Shown: piece after piece, positions 6,712 to 19,226 of the stretch
How the letters are laid out: each line of letters opens with the position of its first letter
How positions within the stretch are numbered: position 1 is the stretch's first letter
From: Inhella inkyongensis
GTDB taxonomy: Bacteria > Pseudomonadota > Gammaproteobacteria > Burkholderiales > Burkholderiaceae_C
DNA length: 64,000 nt
Direction of reading: 5' to 3'
Assembly (NCBI RefSeq): GCF_005952805.1
Contig: NZ_CP040709.1
Coordinates: forward strand, 3,720,001-3,784,000
Position numbers and translations under genes: made by a program
Notes under the pieces: model-generated
Databases searched by the model: none
What the model saw: the letters and a program-made list of their open reading frames with translations, nothing else
Told to the model about the DNA's origin: nothing

Positions 6712-9045
6712 ATGGCCAGCAGCCAAGGCGAGCCATCGCCTAAAGGGCGGCTCATCGCCCATAGCGCCAACAGCAGCGGGAAAGTTCACGGTCTGGCGGA
6801 GCACTTGCACAAGGTTGCCGCGCGGGCCGCCGAGTTCAGTGCCGCGTGGGGAGATCCCTGCTTTGCCCGGCTTGCCGGTGCCTGGCACGACATCGGCAAG
6901 GCACGGCCCGGCTTTCAGCGACACATCGGCCGCGACCCCGACGCCCATATCGAGGGCAAGGTGGCCGGAGCCGAGAAGACTCACTCGGCCGCCGGCGCGC
7001 TGCACGCCCAGACAGCGCTGGCGATGTGCTTGGACGCCCAGAGTGCCGAGCTCTTGGCGCGACCGCTGCAGTACCTGATTGCCGGCCACCATGCCGGTTT
7101 GGCGGACTGGCAGGCTCAAGAAGGGCGTGTCGGGCTGGCCGCGCGCTTGGCCAGCTCCAGTGCGCAGACGGAATACGCCGAGGCCACTCAAGGTTTGAAG
7201 GAGGCGGGGCAAGACGTCGCGCCGGCCCCTGACGCACAAGCCCTGGTCGCCGCAGCGCGCGCCGTCTTGGGTAGCAAGGACAAATTGGCCCGCGCGCTGG
7301 CGCTGCGCATGTTGTTCTCTGCCCTGGTGGATGCCGACTTCCTCGACACCGAGGCCCATTTCAATGACGAACAGGCTGCCCGTCGCGGCAGTTTCCAGCC
7401 CATTGCCCAGTATTCCGAACAGCTCCAGGCTCATCTGCGCGCCATGGCGGAGCGCGTCCAAGCGCAAGGCCAGGCCGAGCATCCGGTGATGCGCGCGCGC
7501 TCCGATGTGCTACAGGCCTGTCTGGCTCGCGCCGAGGAAGCGCCGGGTGTCTTCACGCTCACCGTGCCTACGGGCGGGGGGAAGACTCTGTCTTCGCTGG
7601 CCTTCGCGCTCGAACACGCGCGGCTGCACGGCCTGCGCCGCGTTGTCTACGCCATTCCCTACACCAGCATCATTGAGCAAACGGCCTCGGTGTTTGCAGA
7701 CATCTTTGGCGCCGATCAGGTGATCGAACATCACAGCCAGGCCGACCGCGCACCCGAGGCCGAGTCCGGCGCGTCACGACTGGCCTGCGAGAACTGGGAC
7801 GCCCCGCTGATCGTCACCACCAATGTGCAGTTCTTTGAGTCGCTGTTTGCCGCCAGCACTTCGCGCTGTCGCAAGCTGCATCGTCTGGCGGGCAGCGTCA
7901 TCGTGCTGGACGAGGCCCAGATGCTGCCGCCCGCATTCCTGCAGCCCATCCTGGATGCGCTCAGGGCCCTGTTGACCCAGTACCGAATCAGCCTGGTGCT
8001 TTGCACCGCCACGCAGCCAGTGCTGACCAGCCGAGAGGCCTTCGACCCACGCCAGAGTCTGCGTGGGCTGCCGGCCCCGCAGCCCATCGTCGACCCCGTG
8101 CCGCTGTTCGCGGCCTTGCGTCGCACGCAGATCCACTGGCCCGCCGATCTGAATGCGGCGACCGAACTCCCAGCCCTGGGCGAGAGCCTGCAGCGCGAAC
8201 CCAGCGCTCTTGCCATTCTCAACACGCGCGCCGATGCCATGGCGCTGGCCCAACTGCTGCCCCGCGAACCCACCTTGCATCTGAGCGCAGCCCTGTGTGG
8301 CGCGCACCGCGCCCAGGTCGTGGGCGAAATCCGTGCTCGCCTTGCGGCCGGCACGCCTCTGCATGTGATCAGCACGCAGCTGATCGAGGCCGGTGTGGAT
8401 GTCGACTTCCCTGTGGTGTGGCGGGCCCTGGCGGGGCTCGACTCCATCGCCCAGGCGGCCGGTCGCTGCAACCGCGAGGGCCGGCGAGAGCGCGGCGCGG
8501 TGAATGTCTTTGTGCGCCCCATTCCAAAGCCCTTGGCCCAGCTCCGCATTGCGGCCGACACCACGCGCAGCCTGCATGCCGAGGGTCTGCCCGATGCCCT
8601 GGCCCCCGAGGCTTTCGAACGCTACTTCAAGGCCTTCTATGCGCGACAGCTGCTGGACGAAAAGCAGATCGTTGACCTGCTGGACGAGCGCAGCGGCCCC
8701 ATGGAATTCAGCTTCCGCACGGCGGCCGACCGCTTCCGCCTGATCGACGATCAGGACCAGTGCGCGCTGTTGATCCCGTTGCATCGCTTGCTGCCTGGAC
8801 ATGAGGCGCTGGCGCCACTCATCGGAAAGCTCGAATCCGGAGCGGCCGACCGCTGGTTGCTGCGCAGCGTGCAGCGCTATGTGCTGAGTGTCCGCCAGCG
8901 CCAGGTGGATGAGTTGCTGCGTACCCGATCCGTCAAGCCCCTGGCTTGCGGCCTCTACCTCCTGGACGACGACACCCGCTATGACAGCCGCTTCGGACTC
9001 ATGCCTGCGGAAAGGGCAATTGATGCAACAACCATGGTGCAGTAA
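6712..9045 (+). CDS. cas3: CRISPR-associated nuclease-helicase Cas3 (type I-C)
   Basis: A 777-residue enzyme that Cascade recruits to degrade target DNA. An N-terminal HD nuclease domain has H59-D60 in AWHDIGKARPGF and a second metal-ligand segment AGHHAG near residue 124. The helicase has Walker A TGGGKT (about residues 287-292), the DEAQ box near 400, and motif VI QAAGRCNREGR near 583-593. Domain order HD then helicase, and its place before cas5c, are standard for I-C. The ATG follows AGGGAG (6701-6706). A strong hairpin right after the stop suggests that cas3 is transcribed apart from cas5c-cas2. Confidence 0.96.
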   Translation: MASSQGEPSPKGRLIAHSANSSGKVHGLAEHLHKVAARAAEFSAAWGDPCFARLAGAWHDIGKARPGFQRHIGRDPDAHIEGKVAGAEKTHSAAGALHAQTALAMCLDAQSAELLARPLQYLIAGHHAGLADWQAQEGRVGLAARLASSSAQTEYAEATQGLKEAGQDVAPAPDAQALVAAARAVLGSKDKLARALALRMLFSALVDADFLDTEAHFNDEQAARRGSFQPIAQYSEQLQAHLRAMAERVQAQGQAEHPVMRARSDVLQACLARAEEAPGVFTLTVPTGGGKTLSSLAFALEHARLHGLRRVVYAIPYTSIIEQTASVFADIFGADQVIEHHSQADRAPEAESGASRLACENWDAPLIVTTNVQFFESLFAASTSRCRKLHRLAGSVIVLDEAQMLPPAFLQPILDALRALLTQYRISLVLCTATQPVLTSREAFDPRQSLRGLPAPQPIVDPVPLFAALRRTQIHWPADLNAATELPALGESLQREPSALAILNTRADAMALAQLLPREPTLHLSAALCGAHRAQVVGEIRARLAAGTPLHVISTQLIEAGVDVDFPVVWRALAGLDSIAQAAGRCNREGRRERGAVNVFVRPIPKPLAQLRIAADTTRSLHAEGLPDALAPEAFERYFKAFYARQLLDEKQIVDLLDERSGPMEFSFRTAADRFRLIDDQDQCALLIPLHRLLPGHEALAPLIGKLESGAADRWLLRSVQRYVLSVRQRQVDELLRTRSVKPLACGLYLLDDDTRYDSRFGLMPAERAIDATTMVQ

Positions 9046-9046
9046 G

Positions 9047-9072
9047 GCGCGGGAGGCCGAAGCCTCCCGCGC
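9047..9072. terminator. strong hairpin after cas3, also 3' end of the crRNA-like RNA
   Basis: An 11-bp perfect GC-rich stem, arms 9047-9057 and 9062-9072, starts two bases after the cas3 stop. On the plus strand the loop is CGAA and three T follow, so it could terminate cas3 transcription. On the minus strand the loop is UUCG closed by C-G, the extra-stable tetraloop. That suggests a protective 3' hairpin on a minus-strand RNA (next entry). Confidence 0.75.
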
Positions 9073-9114
9073 TTTCCAGCGGACCTATTGGCCAGAAAGT
9101 TTCAATCCACGCCC
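9047..9114 (-). ncRNA. predicted crRNA-like regulatory RNA (CreA/CreR-like) in the cas3-cas5c gap
   Basis: Read on the minus strand, 9114-9099 is GGGCGTGGATTGAAAC. It matches the last 16 nt of the array repeat at 15 of 16 bases and includes the 11-nt I-C handle. A 26-nt spacer-like sequence (9098-9073) follows, then the UUCG hairpin. From the handle this gives about 63 nt, close to a mature I-C crRNA. The 5' arm of the repeat stem is missing, so it cannot be an ordinary array. A minus-strand -10-like TATCAT (complement of 9131-9136) lies upstream. Spacer positions 1-14 match a site at 9152-9165 next to a TTC PAM. Known CreA and CreR RNAs work this way; expression here is inferred. Confidence 0.72.
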
Positions 9115-9170
9115 TGTGTTGAGCACCCGAATGATATGCGAATTTATCTTACTGTTGGCTAGAAAGAAGA
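9115..9170 (+). promoter_or_regulatory. predicted promoter of the cas5c operon with embedded Cascade target site
   Basis: An AT-rich patch (9131-9150) in a GC-rich genome, with TTGAGC at 9119-9124 and TATCTT at 9145-9150 as imperfect promoter hexamers. The protospacer-like site 9152-9165 and its PAM (GAA at 9166-9168, TTC on the minus strand) overlap the expected start of transcription. A bound effector would cover the -10 region and block initiation. Exact hexamers are uncertain because the spacing between them is 20 nt. Confidence 0.55.
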
Positions 9171-9206
9171 TTGATGTAGAGTTGCGCAGCCACTTCAGCT
9201 GCAGCT

Positions 9207-9389
9207 ATGAACCATCTGTCCCATCTGCTCAGAGAGCAAAGCCTCGCGGCGCTGCTGCGCGAGCTGCGCCTCCTGCGCGGTCAGCCTTGGTATCGGTACT
9301 GCATGGCTTGGCTGATCGTTGCTGCACATAGCTCAGCGCGCGTCGGCCTGCTTTGGTTCGTAGTCCAGCAAGTGATATCAAAAAAATAG
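9207..9389 (+). CDS. 60-residue small protein upstream of cas5c (candidate toxin or leader peptide)
   Basis: An ATG-initiated frame of 60 residues ending TAG 11 nt before cas5c. The first half is an amphipathic, Leu/Arg-rich helix (MNHLSHLLREQSLAALLREL). The second half is hydrophobic with aromatics (CMAWLIVAAH, VGLLWFVVQQVI) and ends SKK, so it may associate with membranes. Third positions favour G and C, consistent with coding. No Shine-Dalgarno sequence is seen before the ATG. Just upstream a minimal ATG-TAG frame lies at 9174-9179 behind a purine-rich AGAAAGAAG. I recognise no homologue. Its place under the crRNA-like RNA target makes a CreT-like toxin one option; it may also be spurious. 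Confidence 0.45.
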   Translation: MNHLSHLLREQSLAALLRELRLLRGQPWYRYCMAWLIVAAHSSARVGLLWFVVQQVISKK

Positions 9390-9400
9390 GGAGCCTCGTT

Positions 9401-10048
9401 GTGAATAGCTACTGCCTTCAAGTCGTCGGTGACTACGCCTGCTTCACTCGCCCCGAGATGAAGGTCGAGCGCGTCAGCTACGACGTCATCACCCCCTCGG
9501 CCGCCCGCGCGCTCTTCGAGACCATCTTGTGGAAGCCCGCAATCCGATGGCGGATCAGGCGCATCGAAGTGCTTCAGCCCATCCGTTGGATCAATCTGCG
9601 CCGCAACGAAGTCGGCGCTGTCATCTCTACCAGCAATGTGCAGCAGGCCATGAATGCCGGGGCGGGCAGCCTGGCCCTCTATGTCGAGGACGAGCGCCAG
9701 CAGCGCGCCGGCCTTTTCTTGCGCGACGTGGCCTACCGTGTGCATGCCGAATTGGATGTCCGCACCGGCGAGCCCCGTCAGAAATACGAAGAAATGTTCC
9801 AGCGCCGAGCGGGCAAGGGGCAGTGGGTGAACCAGCCCTATCTGGGTTGTCGCGAATTCGCTGCCGATGTGCGCCTGGTGGATGCCGCTGCGCCTGGGCC
9901 TGTGCCCATTCCGGAGACGCGCGACCTGGGTTGGATGCTGCACGACCTCGACTTCGGCAACTCGGCCTCGCCCCAGCCACGTTTCTTCCGTGCCCAGATG
10001 CAAGCCGGCGTGATCGAGGTGCCGGCCTTTGGGGAGGCGGCCGCATGA
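9401..10048 (+). CDS. cas5c: CRISPR-associated protein Cas5c (Cas5d), pre-crRNA endonuclease
   Basis: A 215-residue RAMP protein. In type I-C, which lacks Cas6, Cas5c cuts the repeat RNA and stays on the crRNA 5' handle in Cascade. The GTG at 9401 follows AGGGAG (9388-9393) by 7 nt and gives VNSYCLQVVGDYACFTRPEM, the usual family start; a longer upstream start at 9353 lacks a ribosome site. Typical segments include SYDVITPSAARALFE near residues 26-40. The stop overlaps cas8c as ATGA. Confidence 0.95.
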   Translation: MNSYCLQVVGDYACFTRPEMKVERVSYDVITPSAARALFETILWKPAIRWRIRRIEVLQPIRWINLRRNEVGAVISTSNVQQAMNAGAGSLALYVEDERQQRAGLFLRDVAYRVHAELDVRTGEPRQKYEEMFQRRAGKGQWVNQPYLGCREFAADVRLVDAAAPGPVPIPETRDLGWMLHDLDFGNSASPQPRFFRAQMQAGVIEVPAFGEAAA

Positions 10049-11808
10049 TCCTGCAAGCCCTGACCCAGCTCTACGAGCGACGCAGCCGCGACCCGGATCC
10101 GGCCCGACGCCTGCCCGCGCCCGGCCTGGAAGACAAGGACATCCCCTTCATCGTCGAGCTGCGACCCGATGGCAGTCCGGTGCAGTTGCGGGACACCCGG
10201 CGCACCGTGGGCAAAAAGCCGCGCGCCCAAAGCTTTCTGGTGCCGCAGGGCATCAAGAAGACCTCTGGTGTGGCGGCCAACCTGCTGTGGGACACCGCCG
10301 AATACGCCCTGGGGGTCAGCGCCAAGCCCGAGGCCCCGCGCCTGCCCGAACAAAGGGCAGCCTTTCTCGCCCGTGCCCAGGCCTTGATTCCCCACGCCGA
10401 TGGAGATGTGGGCCTGCAAGCGCTGCTGAGTTTTCTGCAGGCCCCTCAATTGGACCCGTTGCGCGCTGCGCCGCATTGGGACGAATTGCTGCAAGCCAAT
10501 GCCTTGGTGAGCTTCGAACTGCAGGGCGATGCGGGGCAGCTGATTTGCCAGCGGCCGGCCGTACAGGCTGCGGCTCGAACGCTGGAGGCCAGCCAGACCC
10601 CGGGCGAACGAGCCCACTGCCTGGTCGAAGGGGCGCAGCGCCCTGTGGCCCGACTGCATGGCGCCATCAAAGGCGTGTGGGGGGCCCAGACTTCGGGCGC
10701 CAACATCGTGTCCTTCAACCTGGCCGCCTTCAACTCCTATGGCAAGGAGCAAGGGGCCAACGCCCCGGTGGGCGACGCGGCGGTCTTCGCCTACACCACC
10801 GCACTGAATGCCTTGCTGGATCGGGATGCACGCTCCTGTGTTCAGGTGGGAGACGCCTCGACGGTGTTCTGGGCCGAAGCCCCGCACCCCTTTGATGGCG
10901 AATTCACCCTTGCCGACCTCTTTGGCGCCAGCGACAACCCGGATCGAGGCCGCGATGCGGTGCGGGCTCTGTTCAGAGCGGTGCAGTCCGGCCAGATGCC
11001 CAAGGAAGTCGGGGCCACCCGCTTCTTTGTGCTCGGCCTCTCGCCCAACGCCGCACGCATCAGCGTGCGCTTTTGGTTGCCCGCACTGCCCTTCGCCGAA
11101 CTGGCGCCACGCCTGGTGCAGCACTTTGAAGACATCCGCATGGCGCGGCGCTTTGATTCGGATCCGGAGTCACCGTCGCTGTTTCGCCTGCTGACCAGCC
11201 TGGCCGTTCTGGGCAAGGCCGACAACATCCCGCCTCGGCTGGCCGGCGAATGGATGCGCGCCATTCTGGAAGGGCGCCCCCTGCCCGCCGGCCTGCTGAA
11301 CGCCGCTGTCCAGCGCTGCAAGGCCGAACGCGATGTGCCCTATCTGCGCGCCTGCGTCATCAAGGCCTGGCTCAACCGCCAGCGCCCATCCCTTCCTGAC
11401 CCCCACCGTCCGCCACAAACATTCAAGGAGGCCCTGGACATGGACATCACCGAACCGGCCTACCGGCTGGGCCGGCTCTTCGCCACCCTGGAACGCATCC
11501 AGGAGCAGGCGCAGCCCGGCATCAACGCCACCATCCGCGATCGCTACTACGGCGCCGCGTCCACCACACCGGTGGCGGTCTTCACCACCTTGCTGCGGCT
11601 CAAGAACGCCCATCTGAAAAAGCTGGGCGACGGCCAGGGCGCCTACTTTGAGAAGCTGATCGGCGAGGTTCTGGCGCCCCTGGCCGAATTCCCACGCCAA
11701 CTCACGCTGCCCGAGCAAGGCCAGTTCGCCCTGGGCTACTACCACCAGCGCCAAGCTTTCTTCATCAAGAAGTCCGAATCCAACACCGATCAAACCCAGG
11801 GAGATTGA
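10045..11808 (+). CDS. cas8c: CRISPR-associated protein Cas8c (Csd1), Cascade large subunit
   Basis: A 587-residue large subunit of I-C Cascade, which recognises the PAM and recruits Cas3. The sequence MILQALTQLYERRSRDP at the start and VSFNLAAFNSYGKEQGANAP near residue 227 are characteristic of Csd1. The length is normal for the family. The ATG overlaps the cas5c stop (10045-10048). The last 122 codons also carry their own ribosome-binding site and start, giving Cas11c. Confidence 0.95.
   Translation: MILQALTQLYERRSRDPDPARRLPAPGLEDKDIPFIVELRPDGSPVQLRDTRRTVGKKPRAQSFLVPQGIKKTSGVAANLLWDTAEYALGVSAKPEAPRLPEQRAAFLARAQALIPHADGDVGLQALLSFLQAPQLDPLRAAPHWDELLQANALVSFELQGDAGQLICQRPAVQAAARTLEASQTPGERAHCLVEGAQRPVARLHGAIKGVWGAQTSGANIVSFNLAAFNSYGKEQGANAPVGDAAVFAYTTALNALLDRDARSCVQVGDASTVFWAEAPHPFDGEFTLADLFGASDNPDRGRDAVRALFRAVQSGQMPKEVGATRFFVLGLSPNAARISVRFWLPALPFAELAPRLVQHFEDIRMARRFDSDPESPSLFRLLTSLAVLGKADNIPPRLAGEWMRAILEGRPLPAGLLNAAVQRCKAERDVPYLRACVIKAWLNRQRPSLPDPHRPPQTFKEALDMDITEPAYRLGRLFATLERIQEQAQPGINATIRDRYYGAASTTPVAVFTTLLRLKNAHLKKLGDGQGAYFEKLIGEVLAPLAEFPRQLTLPEQGQFALGYYHQRQAFFIKKSESNTDQTQGD
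11440..11808 (+). CDS. cas11c: Cas11c small subunit from an internal start in cas8c
   Basis: Inside cas8c, and in the same frame, AAGGAGG (11425-11431) lies 8 nt before an ATG at 11440. Translation gives 122 residues starting MDITEPAYRLGRLFATLERI. Type I-C systems are known to make the small subunit Cas11c by internal initiation in cas8c, at about this position and size. Two or more Cas11c copies line the belly of Cascade and stabilise the R-loop. The Shine-Dalgarno sequence is as good as any in the operon. Confidence 0.88.
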   Translation: MDITEPAYRLGRLFATLERIQEQAQPGINATIRDRYYGAASTTPVAVFTTLLRLKNAHLKKLGDGQGAYFEKLIGEVLAPLAEFPRQLTLPEQGQFALGYYHQRQAFFIKKSESNTDQTQGD

Positions 11809-11811
11809 CCC

Positions 11812-12720
11812 ATGAGCACCCCCATCACCGGCCGCCTCGACTTCGTCCTGCTCTTTGATGTGAAGGACGGCAACCCCAACGGCGACCCCGACGCCGGCAA
11901 CATGCCCCGCATCGACGCCGAGACTGGCCACGGCCTGATGACCGATGTGGCGTTGAAACGCAAGCTGCGCAACTTCGTTCAGCTCGTCAAAGGCGCCCAA
12001 CCGCCCTACGACATCTACATCAAGGAAAAGGCGGTGCTGGAGCAGACCCACCGCAAGGCCTACGAGGCCATCGGCGCCACCGATGAGCTGAATGATGAGG
12101 GTGACGCCAAGGGCAAGAAAAAACGCAAGGGCAGTGCCGATAGCGTGGACAAGGCGCGCGCCTGGATCTGCCAGAACTTCTTTGACGTGCGCAGCTTTGG
12201 TGCCGTGATGTCCACCGGCGTGAATTGCGGCCAGGTGCGCGGCCCCGTGCAGCTGACCTTCGCGCGCTCGGCCGACCCCATCGTGGCCAGCGAACACGCC
12301 ATCACCCGCATGGCCGTGGCCACCCAGGCCGAGGCGGACAAGCAGGAGGGCGACAACCGCACCATGGGTCGCAAGCACACCGTGCCCTATGCCTTGTATC
12401 GCTCGCACGGCTTCGTCTCGGCCTTCCTTGCCAAGCAGACCGGCTTTTCGACCGAGGACCTGGAGCTGTTGCTGCAGGGGCTGGAGCAGATGTTTGAACA
12501 CGACCGCTCGGCCGCGCGCGGCGAGATGTCCACGCGCGGGCTCTTTGTGTTCCAGCACGACAGCGAACTGGGCAACGCCCATGCGCACAGCCTGTTCGAA
12601 CGGGTGAGCGTGAAGCTCAAGCCCGGTGTCACGGCCCCGCGCAGCTTTGCCGACTATGAGCTGAGCGTGGATGAGGCCAGCCTGCCTGCAGGCGTCAGGT
12701 TGTTGCGCCGCCTGGGCTGA
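11812..12720 (+). CDS. cas7c: CRISPR-associated protein Cas7c (Csd2), Cascade backbone
   Basis: A 302-residue RAMP backbone protein that coats the crRNA spacer in several copies. It opens with [20 protein letters not shown] (about residues 7-26), the conserved Csd2 signature, and later has [20 protein letters not shown]. It starts 3 nt after cas8c. A lysine-rich loop (KGKKKRKG, about 100-107) is probably exposed. Nothing is missing compared with the family. Confidence 0.96.
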
Positions 12721-12728
12721 GCGAAGTC

Positions 12729-13373
12729 ATGGAGGCCGAGCTCATCCCCCTCTCGGCCCTCCAGCACTGGGCCTATTGCCCGCGTCAATGCGCCCTCATC
12801 CATCTGGAGCAGGCCTTTGACGACAACCTGCACACCCTGCGCGGCAACGCCTTGCATGCGCGGGTGGATCAGCCATCGCACAGGCAGGAACAAGGCCTGC
12901 GCGTGGAGCGAGCGCTACCGCTCTGGCACGACGAGCTCGGCCTGATCGGCAAGGCCGATGCGGTGGAGTTCGGCCCCGATGGATCGGCCTGCCCGGTGGA
13001 ATACAAGCAGGGCTCGCGCAACAAGGCGGCGGAGATTGCCGCCTGCGATGAGCTGCAGCTGGCCGCCCAGGCCCTGTGCCTGGAGGCCATGACGGGCCGG
13101 CCGGTGCCGCTGGGAGCGCTGTTCTACGCCAGCTCCAAGCGGCGGCGCGCGGTCGCCATCACGGCCGAACTGCGCGAACGGGTGCGGCAGGCGGCCCAAG
13201 CGGTGCGCGCCATGCTGGCGGCTGGGCAATTGCCTTCGCCGCTGGAGGGCGCGGCAGCGCAGCAGCGCTGCAAGGCTTGTTCGCTGAAGGCGCGCTGCCA
13301 ACCCGAGGCCGCCAGCTGCGCCGCCCTGCGCCAAGCGCGCCAGGCGTTGTTCGACCCCGATGCCCTGCTGTGA
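12729..13373 (+). CDS. cas4: CRISPR-associated exonuclease Cas4
   Basis: A 214-residue RecB-type nuclease that helps Cas1-Cas2 choose and trim PAM-containing prespacers. Iron-sulfur cysteines lie in YCPRQC (residues 16-21) and CKACSLKARC (about 181-190). The nuclease residues fall in GKADAVEF and CPVEYKQG (about 76-100). It starts 8 nt after cas7c and overlaps the presumed cas1 start by 14 nt. Confidence 0.94.
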   Translation: MEAELIPLSALQHWAYCPRQCALIHLEQAFDDNLHTLRGNALHARVDQPSHRQEQGLRVERALPLWHDELGLIGKADAVEFGPDGSACPVEYKQGSRNKAAEIAACDELQLAAQALCLEAMTGRPVPLGALFYASSKRRRAVAITAELRERVRQAAQAVRAMLAAGQLPSPLEGAAAQQRCKACSLKARCQPEAASCAALRQARQALFDPDALL

Positions 13374-14430
13374 GGCCGCCTTGCACCTGCTCAACACCCT
13401 GTATCTCACCACCCCCGACAGCTATCTGCGGCTGGAAAACCAGACCCTGGCCATCGAGCACAACCACGAACTCAAGCTGCGCGTGCCCCTGCATCACCTG
13501 AGCAGCGTGGTCTGCTTTGGCCCCATCCAACTTTCCACGCCGTTGATGCACGGTCTGGCGCAGCAGGGCATCGCCCTGGTGCTGCTGAACGAGCAGGGAC
13601 GATTCCAGGCCCGGCTCGAAGGCCCCATGGCGGGCAATGTGTTGCTGCGGCGGGCCCAGCACCAGGCCGGCCAGGATGGCGAACGCAGCCTGGCCCTGGC
13701 TCGCGCCTTCGTGGCGGGCAAGCTGCGCAACACGCGCAGCTTGTTGCTGCGCGGTGCACGCGAGGCCAAGACGGCCGAGGACGAGGCCGCTTTGACGCGG
13801 CAGGCGCAAAACCTTGCAGCCAGCCTGCGCGCCCTGCCCGCCAGCGCCGACCTGGATCAGTTGCGTGGCATCGAGGGCGAGGCCGCGCGCCAGTACTTCG
13901 CCGGGCTGAGCCTGCTGGTGCGGGCCGACGCCCGCGATGCCTTTCATCTGCGCGATGGCCGCACCCGCCGCCCGCCGCGCGACCGCCTCAACGCCCTGTT
14001 GTCCTTCCTCTACAGCCTGTGGATGAACGACTGCCGCAGCGCCCTGGAGGCCGTGGGCCTGGACCCTCAGGTGGGTTTCTTGCACGCCCTCAGGCCGGGC
14101 CGCGCGGCCCTGGCCTTGGACCTGATGGAGGAGTTCCGCCCCCTGGCCGAGCGCCTGGCGCTGACCTTGATCAACCGCCAGCAGCTGCGCGCCGAAGACT
14201 TCGTTCAACGCGAGGGTGGGGCGGTCAGCCTGGACCCCGAAGCCCGCAAGGCCGTGTTGGTGGCCTTTCAGGAGCGCAAGCAAGAGGCCTTGCAACACCC
14301 CCTGCTGGCCGAACCCTTGGCCCAGGGCCTGCTGCCCCTGGTGCAGGCGCGCCTGCTGGCCCGGGCCATTCGTGGTGAGGCCGATGTGGACGGCGCACCG
14401 GCCAGCTATGTTCCCTATCTGATTCGCTGA
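13360..14430 (+). CDS. cas1: CRISPR-associated integrase Cas1
   Basis: A 356-residue integrase that inserts new spacers. The metal ligands fit the family: Glu in GIEGEAARQYF (about residue 174), His in GFLHALRPGR (about 241) and Glu in LDLMEEFRP (about 255). The N-terminal beta domain begins LLNTLYLTTPDSYL, typical of I-C Cas1. The ATG at 13360 lies inside the end of cas4; a downstream in-frame TTG (13383) is also possible and would remove eight residues. Confidence 0.95.
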   Translation: MPCCEAALHLLNTLYLTTPDSYLRLENQTLAIEHNHELKLRVPLHHLSSVVCFGPIQLSTPLMHGLAQQGIALVLLNEQGRFQARLEGPMAGNVLLRRAQHQAGQDGERSLALARAFVAGKLRNTRSLLLRGAREAKTAEDEAALTRQAQNLAASLRALPASADLDQLRGIEGEAARQYFAGLSLLVRADARDAFHLRDGRTRRPPRDRLNALLSFLYSLWMNDCRSALEAVGLDPQVGFLHALRPGRAALALDLMEEFRPLAERLALTLINRQQLRAEDFVQREGGAVSLDPEARKAVLVAFQERKQEALQHPLLAEPLAQGLLPLVQARLLARAIRGEADVDGAPASYVPYLIR

Positions 14431-14436
14431 GCGAGC

Positions 14437-14727
14437 ATGTTGGTCATCGTTTGCTATGACGTGAACACCGAGACCCGCGAGGGGCGGCGGCGCCTGCGGC
14501 GCGTCGCCAAGCTGTGCGAGGCCACTGGGCAACGCGTGCAGAAGTCGGTCTTCGAGTGCCAGATCGACCTGGCCCATATGGAAGAACTGGAGCGCAAGCT
14601 GCGGGCCGCCATGGACGAGACGCAGGACTGTCTGCGGCTCTACCGCCTGCCCGAGACCCGCGGGGCCGAAGTGCGCGAGTACGGGCGCTTCAAGGCGGTG
14701 GACTTTGAGGCCCCCTTGGTGCTCTGA
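14437..14727 (+). CDS. cas2: CRISPR-associated protein Cas2
   Basis: A 96-residue ferredoxin-fold protein that forms the central dimer of the Cas1-Cas2 integrase. The first strand [13 protein letters not shown] carries the conserved Asp, followed by the arginine-rich [13 protein letters not shown] and [14 protein letters not shown] typical of I-C Cas2. It starts 6 nt after cas1 and is the last cas gene before the leader. Confidence 0.96.
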
Positions 14728-14907
14728 AGCCAGGCCTGCGCGAACCCCCAGTGATGGCTTCTCACGCCATGGGTTCGCGTTCCGCTGCCGGCGCCGTGCT
14801 GATGCAGTGTTGCCGGCATTTCCGGGCGTTCGCACCGGGCACTTCCATCGGGGGTTCGCGCGGCACGGCAGAATTCCGCCGCTCCCACAAGCACTTGCAA
14901 TGACGGA
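14728..14907 (+). promoter_or_regulatory. CRISPR leader
   Basis: The 180 bp between cas2 and the first repeat. Repeats read toward ATTGAAAC on the plus strand, and the degenerate repeat lies at the far end, so this side is the leader and crRNA promoter side. It is GC-rich and no clear promoter hexamers are visible. Confidence 0.75.
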
Positions 14908-17900
14908 GCACCGCCCGCCTTCACCGGCGGGCGCGGATTGAAACGGCGTGGGCCTATGGCACGGTCCCGCAATCTGGGCACCGCCCGCCTTCACCGGCGG
15001 GCGCGGATTGAAACGCCCTGGCCGGCGCGACGATCCCGCCCGGCCTTGCACCGCCCGCCTTCACCGGCGGGCGCGGATTGAAACTTGGCTTGACGCTTAC
15101 AGTTTGTCGCGAGTTGCGGCACCGCCCGCCTTCACCGGCGGGCGCGGATTGAAACATGTGCGGCCTTTCATGCCACGGGAACGCCGCCCGCACCGCCCGC
15201 CTTCACCGGCGGGCGCGGATTGAAACGTCAGTCTCACGCAGCCAATCGACACCACCAATGCGCACCGCCCGCCTTCACCGGCGGGCGCGGATTGAAACAT
15301 CGAATGGGATTTGAGGCATGGCCGCGCGTGGCGGCACCGCCCGCCTTCACCGGCGGGCGCGGATTGAAACCTGTTGAGCCGCGCTCAGGGTCGGGGGCTG
15401 TGGTGCACCGCCCGCCTTCACCGGCGGGCGCGGATTGAAACGTTGAAGTGGTGAACAACGCCGCCAGCGGCACGGCACCGCCCGCCTTCACCGGCGGGCG
15501 CGGATTGAAACCGCGTGGCCGAGCCGCATCACGATGGGACGCCGCGCACCGCCCGCCTTCACCGGCGGGCGCGGATTGAAACTGGCTAGGATTGAGGCGG
15601 TAGGCGCTAGCTTCGGCACCGCCCGCCTTCACCGGCGGGCGCGGATTGAAACATCGAAAAGCCGAATCAATTGAGCCATAGCCCAGCACCGCCCGCCTTC
15701 ACCGGCGGGCGCGGATTGAAACCACCATCAAAGGCTCTGCGGGCCGGCTGATCGGATGCACCGCCCGCCTTCACCGGCGGGCGCGGATTGAAACCTCATG
15801 GCGCCCAGGCCTCCGACAGATCCGGCACGCACCGCCCGCCTTCACCGGCGGGCGCGGATTGAAACCCGGCGCTCTTCGACGGTCTGCACGCCCACAACCT
15901 GCACCGCCCGCCTTCACCGGCGGGCGCGGATTGAAACAAGATCCCCCCGGTGATGTTGTCCACGAACTGGAACGCACCGCCCGCCTTCACCGGCGGGCGC
16001 GGATTGAAACGCCTGCTCGATGCCGAGCACTTGAGCGCCGCCGACGCACCGCCCGCCTTCACCGGCGGGCGCGGATTGAAACGTTTGATGTGGTGGACAA
16101 CAGCAACCGCAGCAGCGCACCGCCCGCCTTCACCGGCGGGCGCGGATTGAAACAGCGCAGGCAAGCGCATGCACCGGATCACCCGCAGCACCGCCCGCCT
16201 TCACCGGCGGGCGCGGATTGAAACTCGATCTGGGCATCGGTGAGCTTTTGACGTCCTGAGCACCGCCCGCCTTCACCGGCGGGCGCGGATTGAAACCGCA
16301 CGCCCTCCGGCGTCTGGCTGCACAGCACGGCACCGCCCGCCTTCACCGGCGGGCGCGGATTGAAACGTCTGCGTCGACGACTGTTTGTAATGGCGGCTGC
16401 GCACCGCCCGCCTTCACCGGCGGGCGCGGATTGAAACGGCCAGATGCTGGCCGATCTCGGGGGGCCAACGGGCACCGCCCGCCTTCACCGGCGGGCGCGG
16501 ATTGAAACTTCGCGTTCCGTGTCGCCATCGATAACTGAGGCCCGCACCGCCCGCCTTCACCGGCGGGCGCGGATTGAAACACGGAGTGCGGGCGCGCTCA
16601 AACGCCACCTCCACGCACCGCCCGCCTTCACCGGCGGGCGCGGATTGAAACATTGTGCCAACACGCGCCGGCATCCTGGGCGGCGCACCGCCCGCCTTCA
16701 CCGGCGGGCGCGGATTGAAACAACGGCACCGCCATTGCCAACCTGGCCGACAACGCGCACCGCCCGCCTTCACCGGCGGGCGCGGATTGAAACCAGCCCA
16801 TCTAGTGCCTCACTTTCGGGCCAGCAGGCACCGCCCGCCTTCACCGGCGGGCGCGGATTGAAACATGCCTTCGGGCGTGCGCGCCGCGCTCGAAAAAGGC
16901 ACCGCCCGCCTTCACCGGCGGGCGCGGATTGAAACTGTGATGCTGGCGCGGGACAAGGCGATCCGGGCCGCACCGCCCGCCTTCACCGGCGGGCGCGGAT
17001 TGAAACAAGGACGCCCGCGACAAGCTCAAAAGCGGCCTGCGCACCGCCCGCCTTCACCGGCGGGCGCGGATTGAAACCTGCAGGGGCGCCGCAAAGCGCT
17101 CGGCCAGCTCAGCACCGCCCGCCTTCACCGGCGGGCGCGGATTGAAACGGGTGGCCGGGAATCCGTACTGGCTGACCCTGGAGCACCGCCCGCCTTCACC
17201 GGCGGGCGCGGATTGAAACTGACATGGTGAAAGCCCGCCAACTGATCGCCAAGACGCACCGCCCGCCTTCACCGGCGGGCGCGGATTGAAACTGCCAGCA
17301 GCTGGAGCACGTGGCTTTGCCGTGCGAGCACCGCCCGCCTTCACCGGCGGGCGCGGATTGAAACTTCATTGCCGGAGCGGGGATGTACTCAGCCCCGGCA
17401 CCGCCCGCCTTCACCGGCGGGCGCGGATTGAAACTGGGAGGGAGCCATGCCGCACATCACCGCAGCCTTGCACCGCCCGCCTTCACCGGCGGGCGCGGAT
17501 TGAAACGGCGGTGATGCTGGCCAGCCGTGCGGTGGCCAAGCACCGCCCGCCTTCACCGGCGGGCGCGGATTGAAACGGCCTGCCCCCGGGCACCGTCGAA
17601 ATCGTCGGCGCACCGCCCGCCTTCACCGGCGGGCGCGGATTGAAACATCCGCTGGTCTTGGCGCCGCTACTCCTGCGGCGGCACCGCCCGCCTTCACCGG
17701 CGGGCGCGGATTGAAACTGATCGCTCAATGCGCTTGCGCTCGGCTTCAGTAGGCACCGCCCGCCTTCACCGGCGGGCGCGGATTGAAACTTCCATCAAGG
17801 CCTCGCTCTTGCTGATCCAGCTCGCACCGCCCGCCTTCACCGGCGGGCGCGGATTGAAACGCTGGGTCGCTCGCTTGAGGACTTGAAGCGCAAGCACCGC

Positions 17901-18356
17901 CCGCCTTCACCGGCGGGCGCGGATTGAAACCAGTGGTGAGGGCCGGGCAATGATCATCTTTCACGCACCGCCCGCCTTCACCGGCGGGCGCGGATTGAAA
18001 CACGCACGAGCTGCAGGCGGTGCAGTGGATCGAAGCACCGCCCGCCTTCACCGGCGGGCGCGGATTGAAACTTCGTTCAGCAGGCCAGCGCGGCCGGCGA
18101 TGACGCGCACCGCCCGCCTTCACCGGCGGGCGCGGATTGAAACTTTGGGTAACTGCCCTACGGGGTTGCCTGATCAGGCACCGCCCGCCTTCACCGGCGG
18201 GCGCGGATTGAAACCTGGAGGCCGGCAGCATGAGCGGCATTCGGCCCGGCACCGCCCGCCTTCACCGGCGGGCGCGGATTGAAACTTGGCATCGGTGGGC
18301 GGCAGGCCCACCAAGCCGCCGCACCGCCCGCCTTCACCGGCGGGCGCGGATGAAAC
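14908..18356 (+). CRISPR. type I-C CRISPR array, 49 repeats and 48 spacers
   Basis: A 37-nt repeat runs GCACCGCCCGCC - TTCACC - GGCGGGCGCGG - ATTGAAAC. The 8-bp stem pairs repeat positions 5-12 with 19-26 around a 6-nt loop, and the 3' end is the standard I-C handle. I counted 49 repeat starts, from 14908 to 18321, at 70-73 nt steps, so spacers are 33-36 nt. The first 48 repeats appear identical. The last (18321-18356) lacks one T of the handle (GGATGAAAC), which marks the old, trailer end. The array follows cas2 directly and shows no visible duplicated spacer. Confidence 0.99.
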
Positions 18357-18425
18357 GGATCTTGGCCACTGACGCCAAGAGCCCCAGCCTCGCAACTCCA
18401 TCTCGTATTCGACGAGCTCCCACCT

Positions 18426-19226
18426 TCACGGCCGCACTCCCCGCACCGCCGTCGCCCGCGCTCGCACGGTGATGGCGCCGCCGCTGTCCTGCAGCCGCTG
18501 CCGCACCCGGGCCTGCAACTCGCCGCGTGTGGCCTCACTCATGGCGTCGAACATCGGCCGCAGGGTGTTGCTGGCGGCGGCGCTGTGCCAGTAGTCGTCG
18601 AAGTGCGCAAATTGGCGCTGGACCTCGATGGTGCGGACCTGCACTTGCTGCAATCCGGCCTGCTGCCACAGCGCGGCCGAGGCCTCGGGGCGGCTGATGG
18701 CGGCGCTCGGCGGCAGGCGCGGGGGCAGCCCCATCTGCTTCATCTCGGCGCCGATGTCGGCCAAGGGAAAGCCACCGTTCAAAAGGTCCCAGTGGTAGGC
18801 GGCCAGGGTGCCGCCCGGGCGCACTGCGCGCACCATCTCGGCCAAGCCGGCAGCAGGGTCGGGCACGAAGAACAGCACCAGGGCCATCAACGCGCCGTCG
18901 GCGCTGGCATCGGGCACGGGCAGGCGCTCGGCCTCGGCCCGCGCCCAGTGCACGGGCTGCCCGGGCGCGACGCGCTGGCGGGCGTAGTCCAGCTGGCCAG
19001 CGGAAGGGTCGAAGGCGCGCACCGAGGCGGGCTGGGTACGCGTCAGCAGCAGTTCAGTGAAGGCCCCATTGCCGCAGCCAATGTCCAGCCAGTGCTGCGC
19101 GGGAGCTGGAGCCAACCAGTCCAGAAACTGCTCACCGGCCAGCCGGCTCCAGTGGCCCATCAGGCGCTCGTAGGCGGCGCCGTCATCGAACTGGATGGGA
19201 GGTGGGTCGCGCAGGGGGTCGATCAT
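18426..19226 (-). CDS. class I SAM-dependent methyltransferase
   Basis: A 266-residue methyltransferase with SAM-binding motif I LDIGCGNGAF at about residues 47-56. The acidic motif II region AFDPSAGQLDYARQR and post-motif RAVRPGGTLAAYHW fit the UbiE/Methyltransf_11 group. The substrate cannot be told from sequence. The start lies 5 nt after the stop of the PKD protein gene, so they form an operon read toward the CRISPR array, with convergent ends 70 nt apart. The 69-bp gap next to the array shows no feature. Confidence 0.88.
   Translation of the reverse strand: MIDPLRDPPPIQFDDGAAYERLMGHWSRLAGEQFLDWLAPAPAQHWLDIGCGNGAFTELLLTRTQPASVRAFDPSAGQLDYARQRVAPGQPVHWARAEAERLPVPDASADGALMALVLFFVPDPAAGLAEMVRAVRPGGTLAAYHWDLLNGGFPLADIGAEMKQMGLPPRLPPSAAISRPEASAALWQQAGLQQVQVRTIEVQRQFAHFDDYWHSAAASNTLRPMFDAMSEATRGELQARVRQRLQDSGGAITVRARATAVRGVRP

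What the first reader, a model, noticed from the sequence alone, without database searches (positions are those of the whole stretch)
9047..9168. crRNA-like guide in a type I-C locus that appears to target the promoter of its own cas operon
On the minus strand, 9114-9099 matches the last 16 nt of the array repeat at 15 of 16 bases, keeping the crRNA handle. It is followed by a 26-nt spacer-like stretch and an 11-bp C(UUCG)G hairpin. Spacer positions 1-14 (TTTCTGGCCAATAG) match the minus strand of 9152-9165 (TTTCTAGCCAACAG). The only mismatches are at positions 6 and 12, the bases that type I effectors flip out and do not read. The base triplet just 5' of the site is TTC, the I-C PAM. Pairing stops after position 14, which suits binding without Cas3 cleavage. 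The site lies in the AT-rich region expected to hold the cas5c promoter. This fits the CreA/CreR principle (crRNA-like RNA plus Cascade represses a toxin or the cas genes). A case in the cas3-cas5c gap of type I-C is not known to me.
Basis: partly seen in the sequence, partly recalled or inferred. Interest (0 to 1): 0.95.

Follow-up and report, generated by a model that had tools for sequence, protein, structure and literature searches.

The report
CRISPR-repressed toxin module, type I-C
Between the cas3 and cas5c genes of a bacterial type I-C CRISPR system lies a guide-RNA-like sequence that matches a site just upstream of a tiny overlooked gene, so the CRISPR complex is predicted to keep that gene, a likely membrane toxin, switched off and would release it if the immune system were disabled.

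Summary
The guide is real. The exact I-C handle, 26-nt guide, hairpin and TTC-flanked partial target (mismatches only at positions 6 and 12 within 1-14) are where stated. It is not chance: 24 of 189 usable cas5c loci pass the same handle-plus-target test (permuted handle words: mean 0.45), 20 of them among the 27 cas3-cas5c gaps of 250-600 nt, 1 among 146 gaps under 150 nt. Guides differ between loci; 34 of 55 mismatches fall at positions 6 or 12. It belongs to an unnamed family of small, mostly transmembrane proteins (87 database proteins, no Pfam), some related to phage family phrog_6632. In 20 of 20 loci with both a guide and such a small ORF the target lies 13-84 nt upstream of the ORF core, antisense to it; in two loci, found by profile, the module is inverted and the target faces away from cas5c. 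I read it as a CreTA-type CRISPR-guarded toxin module with a protein toxin candidate, cas5c probably co-repressed, rather than a pure cas autorepressor. I-F and I-E precedents sit in the same gap; I saw no I-C case in what I could read. Toxicity and expression are untested.

The parts
9099..9126 (-). degenerate CRISPR repeat (psi-R) of the creA-like gene: weak stem-loop GTGCTC-AACACA-GGGCGT followed by the exact handle GGATTGAAAC (9108-9099)
   Evidence: Sequence; only exact copy of the handle pattern outside the array in 4.08 Mb; predicted stem-loop; own-versus-swapped stem pairing in 28 chosen loci
9073..9098 (-). 26-nt guide (psi-spacer) TTTCTGGCCAATAGGTCCGCTGGAAA
   Evidence: Positions 1-5, 7-11, 13-14 match the target
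9047..9072 (-). 11-bp hairpin with TTCG loop at the end of the creA-like RNA, where a second repeat could have been; no U-run behind it
   Evidence: a strong hairpin behind the guide in most of 28 relatives; no terminator called by the consensus scan
9152..9168 (-). target: protospacer 9165-9152 with TTC PAM 9168-9166
9155..9182 (+). predicted promoter of the small ORF and cas5c operon: -35 TTGGCT 9155-9160, 16 nt, -10 TAGAGT 9177-9182
   Evidence: Best plus-strand promoter of the gap in my own matrix scan (score 7.9, next 5.1); NOT called by the stricter consensus scan
9131..9161 (-). predicted promoter of the creA-like RNA: -35 TAGCCA 9161-9156, 19 nt, -10 TATCAT 9136-9131; the -35 lies inside the target
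   Evidence: weak, score 6.8
9207..9389 (+). 60-codon ORF, toxin candidate: MNHLSHLLREQSLAALLRELRLLRGQPWYRYCMAWLIVAAHSSARVGLLWFVVQQVISKK; its stop ends 11 nt before the cas5c start codon
6712..9045 (+). cas3 (HD + helicase)
9401..10048 (+). cas5c
   Evidence: TIGR01876 2.7e-57
10048..11808 (+). cas8c
   Evidence: TIGR01863
11812..12720 (+). cas7c
   Evidence: TIGR02589
12729..14727 (+). cas4, cas1, cas2
   Evidence: TIGR00372, TIGR03640, TIGR01573
14908..18357 (+). CRISPR array (48 exact GGATTGAAAC on the + strand, first at 14935, last ending 18285, plus a degenerate terminal repeat)

Best explanation
The cas3-cas5c gap carries a crRNA-like guide gene, a matching PAM-flanked target and a small ORF just downstream of that target, and it most likely works as a CRISPR-regulated toxin-antitoxin (CreTA-type) module in which Cascade loaded with the guide would keep a predicted membrane toxin silent. 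Steps. (1) A short minus-strand RNA is predicted to start at the psi-repeat stem-loop, be trimmed by Cas5c to the usual handle and end at the 3' hairpin (inferred). (2) It would load into the Cas5c-Cas8c-Cas7 complex in place of a crRNA (inferred from the exact handle). (3) The guide matches the TTC-flanked site 9165-9152 at positions 1-5, 7-11 and 13-14 (shown in sequence); pairing too short for destruction would park Cascade on the site (inferred). (4) The site overlaps the predicted -35 of the promoter reading into the 60-codon ORF and then cas5c, and the predicted -35 of the guide gene itself, so both directions would be shut (predicted). (5) If Cascade is lost, mutated or blocked by an anti-CRISPR, the small protein would be made and arrest the cell, while the cas5c operon would be induced too (inferred). 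Shown here: the guide-target pairing and its recurrence in relatives, a small protein family whose synonymous changes outnumber amino-acid changes per site, its location beside cas5c in 10 of 11 genomes that match, and the constant geometry of target and ORF.
For: Guide/target: 24 of 189 usable loci (193 examined, 4 truncated) pass handle >=8/10 plus TTC target >=11/14; 20 permuted handle words pass 0.45 loci on average, at most 2. By gap length: 1 of 146 under 150 nt (L035, target inside cas3, probably chance), 2 of 9 at 150-250, 20 of 27 at 250-600, 0 of 4 above, 1 of 3 undetermined (which corrects). With all 16 positions scored alike, 24 sites match at 24,24,22,23,23,[11],22,22,23,23,21,[3],20,20,14,12,11,9 for positions 1-18; 34 of 55 mismatches in 1-14 fall at 6 or 12, p about 7e-16; 30 permuted words give 1 site in all. 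Psi-repeat stem: in the best of eight register/length settings, 5-bp arms pair in 17 of 28 own loci versus 14.6% of swapped pairs. Promoter: the best plus-strand promoter of the gap overlaps the target in 16 of 27 loci, 4.0 expected by placement. Small ORF: a profile from 12 ORFs, run on six frames of all loci held, finds 14 distinct loci on the cas strand (16 with two duplicates) plus L127 and L128 on the opposite strand; L018, L036, L127 and L128 were not in training. dS exceeds dN in all seven pairs tested, six of this family and L140/L141, e.g. 0.57/0.03 and 0.82/0.16. 87 database proteins, the window's own included; 84 of 87 have a hydrophobic 17-mer >=1.6. Location: in 369 and 399 genomes (partly the same ones) 11 distinct genomes match, 10 of them within about 210 nt of cas5c; the 11th, G694, is out of frame inside a membrane-protein ORF (against 16, 19). 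Geometry: in 20 of 20 loci with creA and small ORF (15 of this family, 5 other small ORFs) the target is antisense to the ORF and its PAM edge lies 13-84 nt upstream of the ORF core, also in the inverted L127/L128. Phage kinship: 5 of 9 family members given match phrog_6632 at E 4.8e-6 to 0.017. Precedent: in Citrobacter rodentium I-E a 96-bp ORF in the cas3-casA gap, with creA upstream on the opposite strand, is toxic only when translated, and deleting part of the gap rescues a Cascade mutant (PMC12055562, section 13).
Against: No expression, toxicity or binding data exist here. The geometry count is partly by construction: most of the ORFs were first sought only between target and cas5c on the cas strand; the independent part is the profile search over whole loci and genomes, above all the inverted L127 and L128. 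The window's own ORF is a divergent member, has no clear ribosome-binding site, its best hydrophobic 17-mer scores 1.56, and it does not itself match phrog_6632. Its predicted promoter is weak and missed by the consensus scan. The 3' hairpin lacks a U-run. In the window the same promoter would also read into cas5c, so cas autorepression alone cannot be excluded there. Of the 28 loci (L069, L070, L071, L134, L142, L145, L146, L193) have no small ORF that I could assign; L145 has no target either; L036 has the ORF but no recognisable guide. Five of 27 gaps of 250-600 nt have no handle (L036, L175, L198, L199, L202). In the I-F precedent a conserved mini-ORF turned out to act as RNA (PMC10097628 passages), so an ORF is no proof of a protein toxin.
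Confidence: 0.72

Rival explanations
1. CreR-type autorepression only: the guide directs Cascade to the promoter of the cas5c-cas2 operon so that Cascade limits its own production; the small ORF is a passenger or a leader peptide.
For: In the window the predicted promoter reads through the small ORF into cas5c, whose start is 11 nt behind the ORF stop. CreR autorepression is reported for I-B, I-E and V-A (PMC13131331 passage; PMC12737573 passages). Eight guide-bearing loci have no assignable small ORF.
Against: The target keeps its position and strand relative to the small ORF in 20 of 20 loci with both, including two inverted ones where it faces away from cas5c (partly by construction, see best explanation). 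The ORF family shows dS above dN in all six pairs tested and in the genomes searched occurs beside cas5c.
Confidence: 0.16
2. The small membrane protein is not a toxin but a helper of the CRISPR system (for example a membrane anchor or sensor), made only when Cascade falls short.
For: Co-directional with and close to cas5c in most loci that have it; phage relatives are genes without a named function, in lysis regions in two of the six records looked at and beside baseplate genes in three.
Against: Inverted copies, no profile hit in most I-C loci held, and other small ORFs that the profile does not reach in the same slot (L140/L141, L133/L137, L182) fit exchangeable toxins better than a helper.
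Confidence: 0.09
3. The resemblance is a decayed relic: a stray repeat plus a spacer that once matched the neighbouring DNA, without present function.
For: Single degenerate repeat; weak stem with G-U pairs in the window; one relative (L018) has a small ORF whose start and body lie in different frames.
Against: Mismatches concentrated at positions 6 and 12 across loci with unrelated guides are hard to explain without selection; stem pairing kept with different bases.
Confidence: 0.03

Closest known systems
CreTA of Citrobacter rodentium type I-E (PMC12055562, section 13 read)
   Same: Module in the gap between cas3 and the first Cascade gene; creA upstream on the opposite strand; PAM-flanked partial target at the promoter of a small ORF; the ORF must be translated to be toxic.
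   Different: There I-E with ATG PAM, a 96-bp ORF without known relatives, toxicity shown and Cascade dependence shown genetically. Here I-C with TTC PAM, a family of mostly 40-60 codons with database and phage kin, nothing shown at the bench.
CreTA of Acinetobacter type I-F (PMC10097628, section 6 read, passages of other sections)
   Same: About 400-bp cas3-csy1 gap, creA divergent from creT, target between them, continuous cas operon in a relative without the module.
   Different: Two psi-repeats and an RNA toxin there; one psi-repeat plus hairpin and a conserved protein family here.
CreTA of haloarchaea, type I-B (PMC8501985 passages)
   Same: H. hispanica creA has one psi-repeat and ends at a terminator; H. 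hubeiense guide pairs at 1-5 and 7-11 with a TTC-flanked site.
   Different: Archaeal; RNA toxins (title and start of abstract).
CreR cas-regulating RNAs (PMC12737573 and PMC13131331 passages; original paper not held)
   Same: crRNA-like RNA that directs Cascade to a promoter inside the cas locus by partial pairing.
   Different: CreR serves the cas promoter and is generally not coupled to a toxin; here the constant partner is a small ORF.
CrePA with KilA-N toxin (PMC12737573 section 3.3 read)
   Same: Protein toxin of phage kinship held by CreA and Cascade.
   Different: No KilA-N or other Pfam family above cut-off here; a small membrane protein instead.

Membership tests
CreTA (CRISPR-regulated toxin-antitoxin) | Degenerate CRISPR repeat outside the array, adjoining a spacer-like guide, inside a cas locus | tested here: met
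   relatives
CreTA (CRISPR-regulated toxin-antitoxin) | Guide partly complementary (positions 1-5, 7-11) to a PAM-flanked site | tested here: met
CreTA (CRISPR-regulated toxin-antitoxin) | Target lies at the promoter of a neighbouring small gene | tested here: met
   By prediction only: target about 40 nt upstream of the ORF start and over the best predicted promoter; 20 of 20 loci with both parts (partly by construction)
CreTA (CRISPR-regulated toxin-antitoxin) | Product of that gene is toxic | not testable with these tools
   No expression data; family, hydrophobic helix and phage kinship only
CreTA (CRISPR-regulated toxin-antitoxin) | Repression needs Cascade and CreA, not Cas3 or Cas1 | not testable with these tools
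   Needs knockouts and RNA data
CreR (cas-regulating RNA) | Target is at a cas promoter | tested here: inconclusive
   By read-through into cas5c in the window; not so in inverted L127 and L128
CreR (cas-regulating RNA) | No toxin gene attached | tested here: inconclusive
   A small ORF is attached in 20 of 28 loci (15 of one family, 5 other); its toxicity is unknown
CrePA | Toxin with KilA-N domain | tested here: not met
   No Pfam family above cut-off for the window's ORF and five others given
Type I-C CRISPR-Cas locus | cas3, cas5c, cas8c, cas7c, cas4, cas1c, cas2 and array with GGATTGAAAC handle | tested here: met

The most novel reading that the evidence does not exclude
Type I-C carries its own kind of CRISPR-guarded suicide module: one Cascade complex parked on a shared, divergent promoter holds down its own guide RNA on one side and, on the other, a phage-kin membrane toxin fused to the front of the Cascade operon, so that any loss of Cascade (mutation, deletion or anti-CRISPR) releases toxin and fresh Cascade together. 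Resupply of Cascade could rescue the cell, whereas irreversible loss would kill it. The toxin slot is exchangeable (four apparently unrelated kinds of small ORF) and the whole module can flip.
Probability: 0.5. Interest if true: 0.85.

Novelty: new variant of a known kind. Interest (0 to 1): 0.76.

Why it matters
If true, CRISPR addiction by crRNA-like antitoxins extends to type I-C and there uses a recognisable protein family rather than RNAs that are hard to align. That makes such modules searchable by profile, offers a reason why some cas3-cas5c gaps are 300-400 nt while most in this sample are far shorter, and gives a direct test of whether anti-CRISPRs against I-C trigger abortive infection. 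The divergent promoter shared by guide and toxin-cas operon would be a compact homeostat for Cascade. The six-base mismatch rhythm across loci is also a natural record of how Cascade reads DNA.

Tried and rejected
Rejected: chance match (permuted-handle and same-gap controls). Not found: a second repeat behind the guide; most relatives have a hairpin there. Rfam: nothing at gathering thresholds in 8000-18700. Without result: Pfam, NCBIfam and PADLOC for the ORFs given (nothing above cut-off); tblastn of P0017 in phages and plasmids (none at E 1), although the L092 ORF found phage relatives at E 0.01-0.03; AlphaFold2 of the window's ORF (helices 3-22 and 27-59, mean pLDDT 70, pTM 0.34; too weak for a fold search, none run). 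The lysis-gene reading of the phage relatives was weighed and not adopted: of six phage regions looked at, two are lysis regions (SPN3UB, FSL SP-016), three lie beside baseplate genes, one among hypotheticals. Named I-C plasmid loci (10 of 51 records): one candidate, Tistrella mobilis pTM3, 11 of 14 positions. Gap lengths come from a simple ORF caller and can be too short where a chance frame is open (L154, for instance, has its guide at -411 with a called gap of 164). Left out before counting: 14 of the cas5c matches (5, 5 and 4, mostly weak or second copies) and 41 of 51 plasmid records. The papers on CreR (Liu 2023, name recalled) and on CRISPR-derived regulatory RNAs (Shmakov 2023, reference seen) are not held, so I cannot exclude that they list I-C examples; many I-C papers in the listings were not opened.

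Full report
Observation. The minus strand holds GGGCGTGGATTGAAAC (9114-9099), a 26-nt guide (9098-9073) and an 11-bp TTCG hairpin (9072-9047). The target 9165-9152 has TTC in front of it and differs from guide positions 1-14 only at 6 and 12. The locus is type I-C: cas3, cas5c, cas8c, cas7c, cas4, cas1c, cas2 and an array with 48 exact handles. In the 4.08-Mb genome, PAM plus seed occurs once exactly, and the 16-mer handle pattern occurs once exactly outside the array, with ten more places at 1-2 mismatches that were not examined.

Comparison set. After dropping three duplicates (L176, L091, L094), 193 were examined, 4 were truncated and 189 were usable. The sample leans to Pseudomonadota, because the genome scans were centred on the window's order, class and phylum.

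Result. 24 of 189 loci hold a handle (at least 8 of 10) whose downstream guide matches a TTC-flanked site in at least 11 of 14 scored positions; 20 permuted handle words score 0.45 loci on average, at most 2. One of the 24, L035, has almost no gap and a target inside cas3 and is probably chance. By gap length: 1 of 146 loci under 150 nt, 2 of 9 at 150-250, 20 of 27 at 250-600, 0 of 4 above, 1 of 3 undetermined. Some loci with a handle miss the threshold: L071 has TTT as PAM, L154 GTT, and L075 and L140 look shifted by one base within the pairing. Guides differ from locus to locus while handle, PAM and pairing stay.

Cascade fingerprint. With all 16 positions scored alike (to avoid favouring 6 and 12), 24 sites pass and match at 24, 24, 22, 23, 23, 11, 22, 22, 23, 23, 21, 3, 20, 20, 14, 12, 11, 9 for positions 1-18. 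Of 55 mismatches within 1-14, 34 fall at 6 or 12 (p about 7e-16); 30 permuted words give one site in all. Pairing fades at 14-16. That every sixth base is not read by type I effectors is general knowledge and not from a call; published creA pairing at 1-5 and 7-11 was seen in PMC8501985.

Anatomy of the guide gene. In front of the handle a stem-loop is kept with different bases in different loci: in the best of eight register/length settings, 5-bp arms pair in 17 of 28 own loci against 14.6% of swapped pairs; the other settings range from 2 to 18 of 28 against 9-27% (the 28 loci are my chosen set). In the window the stem includes G-U pairs. Behind the guide most loci carry one strong hairpin rather than a second repeat. 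In 8 of the 17 loci with the guide on the minus strand (W, L008, L009, L018, L032, L058, L075, L131) the best promoter on the guide strand ends its -10 29-32 nt before the guide, so the RNA would begin at the stem-loop. Cas5c processes crRNA in I-C; the same paper notes that the mature I-C crRNA lacks a 3' stem-loop, so the hairpin here may only end transcription (PMC7684278 passages).

The missed gene. Between target and cas5c the window has a 60-codon ORF, 9207-9389, whose stop ends 11 nt before the cas5c start. A profile from 12 such ORFs, run on six frames of every cas5c locus held, finds 14 distinct loci on the cas strand (16 with two duplicates) and, on the opposite strand, L127 and L128; L018, L036, L127 and L128 were not in training. 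Core: MDWxGxLRELRLLxxQLPxxRF followed by a hydrophobic stretch. Six pairs of this family, and L140/L141, all show dS above dN, four of them with saturated dS. 87 database proteins match, the window's own included, none with a Pfam domain; 84 of 87 have a hydrophobic 17-mer of at least 1.6, the window's own scores 1.56. In 369 and 399 genomes (partly the same) 11 distinct ones match; 10 matches lie within about 210 nt of cas5c and one (G694) is out of frame inside another ORF (against 16, 19). Other small ORFs, which the profile does not reach, fill the same slot in L140/L141, L133/L137 and L182.

Which gene is the target's partner? In all 20 loci that have both a guide and one of these ORFs, the target is antisense to the ORF and its PAM edge lies 13-84 nt upstream of the ORF core. 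This is partly by construction, since most ORFs were first sought between target and cas5c on the cas strand; the independent evidence is the profile search. In L127 and L128 it finds the ORF on the other strand, and there the entire module is inverted, so the target faces away from cas5c. In L133, L137, L140, L141 and L182 the guide lies downstream of the ORF on the sense strand, and the target is still in front of the ORF. The constant is target plus ORF, not target plus cas5c. The best plus-strand promoter of the gap overlaps the target in 16 of 27 loci, 4.0 expected. In the window it is TTGGCT-16-TAGAGT (9155-9182), weak and not called by the stricter scan; it would read through the ORF into cas5c. 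The predicted -35 of the guide gene (9161-9156) also lies in the target, so one bound Cascade would shut both directions.

Exceptions. Eight loci have no small ORF that I could assign (L069, L070, L071, L134, L142, L145, L146, L193); in L069 and L071 the target is the 5' arm of the guide's own repeat. L145 has a handle but no target. L036 has the ORF but no handle. In L018 the start and the body of the ORF lie in different frames. L175, L198, L199 and L202 have long gaps and no handle.

Phage kinship. Members of the family match phage family phrog_6632 (E 4.8e-6 for P0035, 3.9e-5 for P0003, 5.4e-4 for P0017, 0.017 and 0.016 for P0001 and P0065; 4 others of 9 given do not). The window's own ORF does not; its best PHROG is phrog_9201 at 0.014. 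The phage relatives (14 records) are small proteins without a named function in the records looked at: between endolysin and the next gene in SPN3UB (Rz) and FSL SP-016, beside baseplate genes in three others, among hypotheticals in one. This suggests a phage-kin membrane protein and not a particular function.

Mechanism and class. The arrangement resembles published CreTA modules: I-F Acinetobacter, in a cas3-csy1 gap of about 400 bp with creA divergent from creT (PMC10097628), and I-E Citrobacter rodentium, in a 495-bp cas3-casA gap, with a 96-bp ORF that is toxic only when translated (PMC12055562). I therefore read the window as a CreTA-type module of type I-C with a protein toxin candidate, whose release on Cascade failure would arrest the cell, with the cas5c operon induced at the same time. 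Toxicity, RNA production and Cascade binding are inferred. The rival that it serves only cas autorepression is weakened by the inverted loci but not excluded for the window.

Novelty. Searches of the held papers for CreR, CreTA, crRNA-like elements and I-C and the sections or passages that I opened showed me no I-C creTA or creR case. Two key papers are not held, and many I-C papers in the listings were not opened. One RNA survey mentions a palindromic RNA candidate about 300 bases upstream of cas3 in I-C, another place (PMC9067536 passage). I rate it a new variant of a known kind.

Noticed in passing
window 18320-18357: The last repeat of the array is degenerate: its handle reads GGATGAAAC (one T missing), as seen.
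   Followed up: no
L018, about 100-170 nt upstream of cas5c: The small ORF looks frame-shifted (start and body in different frames) next to an 11-nt tandem repeat, while guide and target are intact; a broken toxin candidate under an intact guide.
   Followed up: partly
L069 and L071, cas3-cas5c gap: In these two loci (records titled Entotheonella and Nitrospira) the guide matches the 5' arm of its own psi-repeat, behind a strong predicted promoter on the cas strand (TTGACA); this may be the pure CreR form.
   Followed up: partly
L036, cas3-cas5c gap (283 nt): Family ORF present without a recognisable handle; an orphan toxin candidate or a guide encoded elsewhere.
   Followed up: no
L209 1700-1935 and L210 1700-1947: Phage relatives of the small ORF are preceded by a strong GC hairpin with a T-run, like independently transcribed accessory genes; the one in SPN3UB is unannotated.
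   Followed up: partly
L193 (Tistrella mobilis pTM3), -106 and -200 from cas5c: A weaker creA-like candidate on a named alphaproteobacterial plasmid (handle 9 of 10, target 11 of 14).
   Followed up: partly
L202 (Streptomyces globisporus SGLP1): About 1.1-kb gap between annotated cas3 and cas5c with a hypothetical gene on the opposite strand; no handle found with the consensus used here.
   Followed up: no
L012, L044, L052, L067: Gaps of 757-792 nt between the nearest long upstream ORF and cas5c, without a guide passing the test; content not examined.
   Followed up: no
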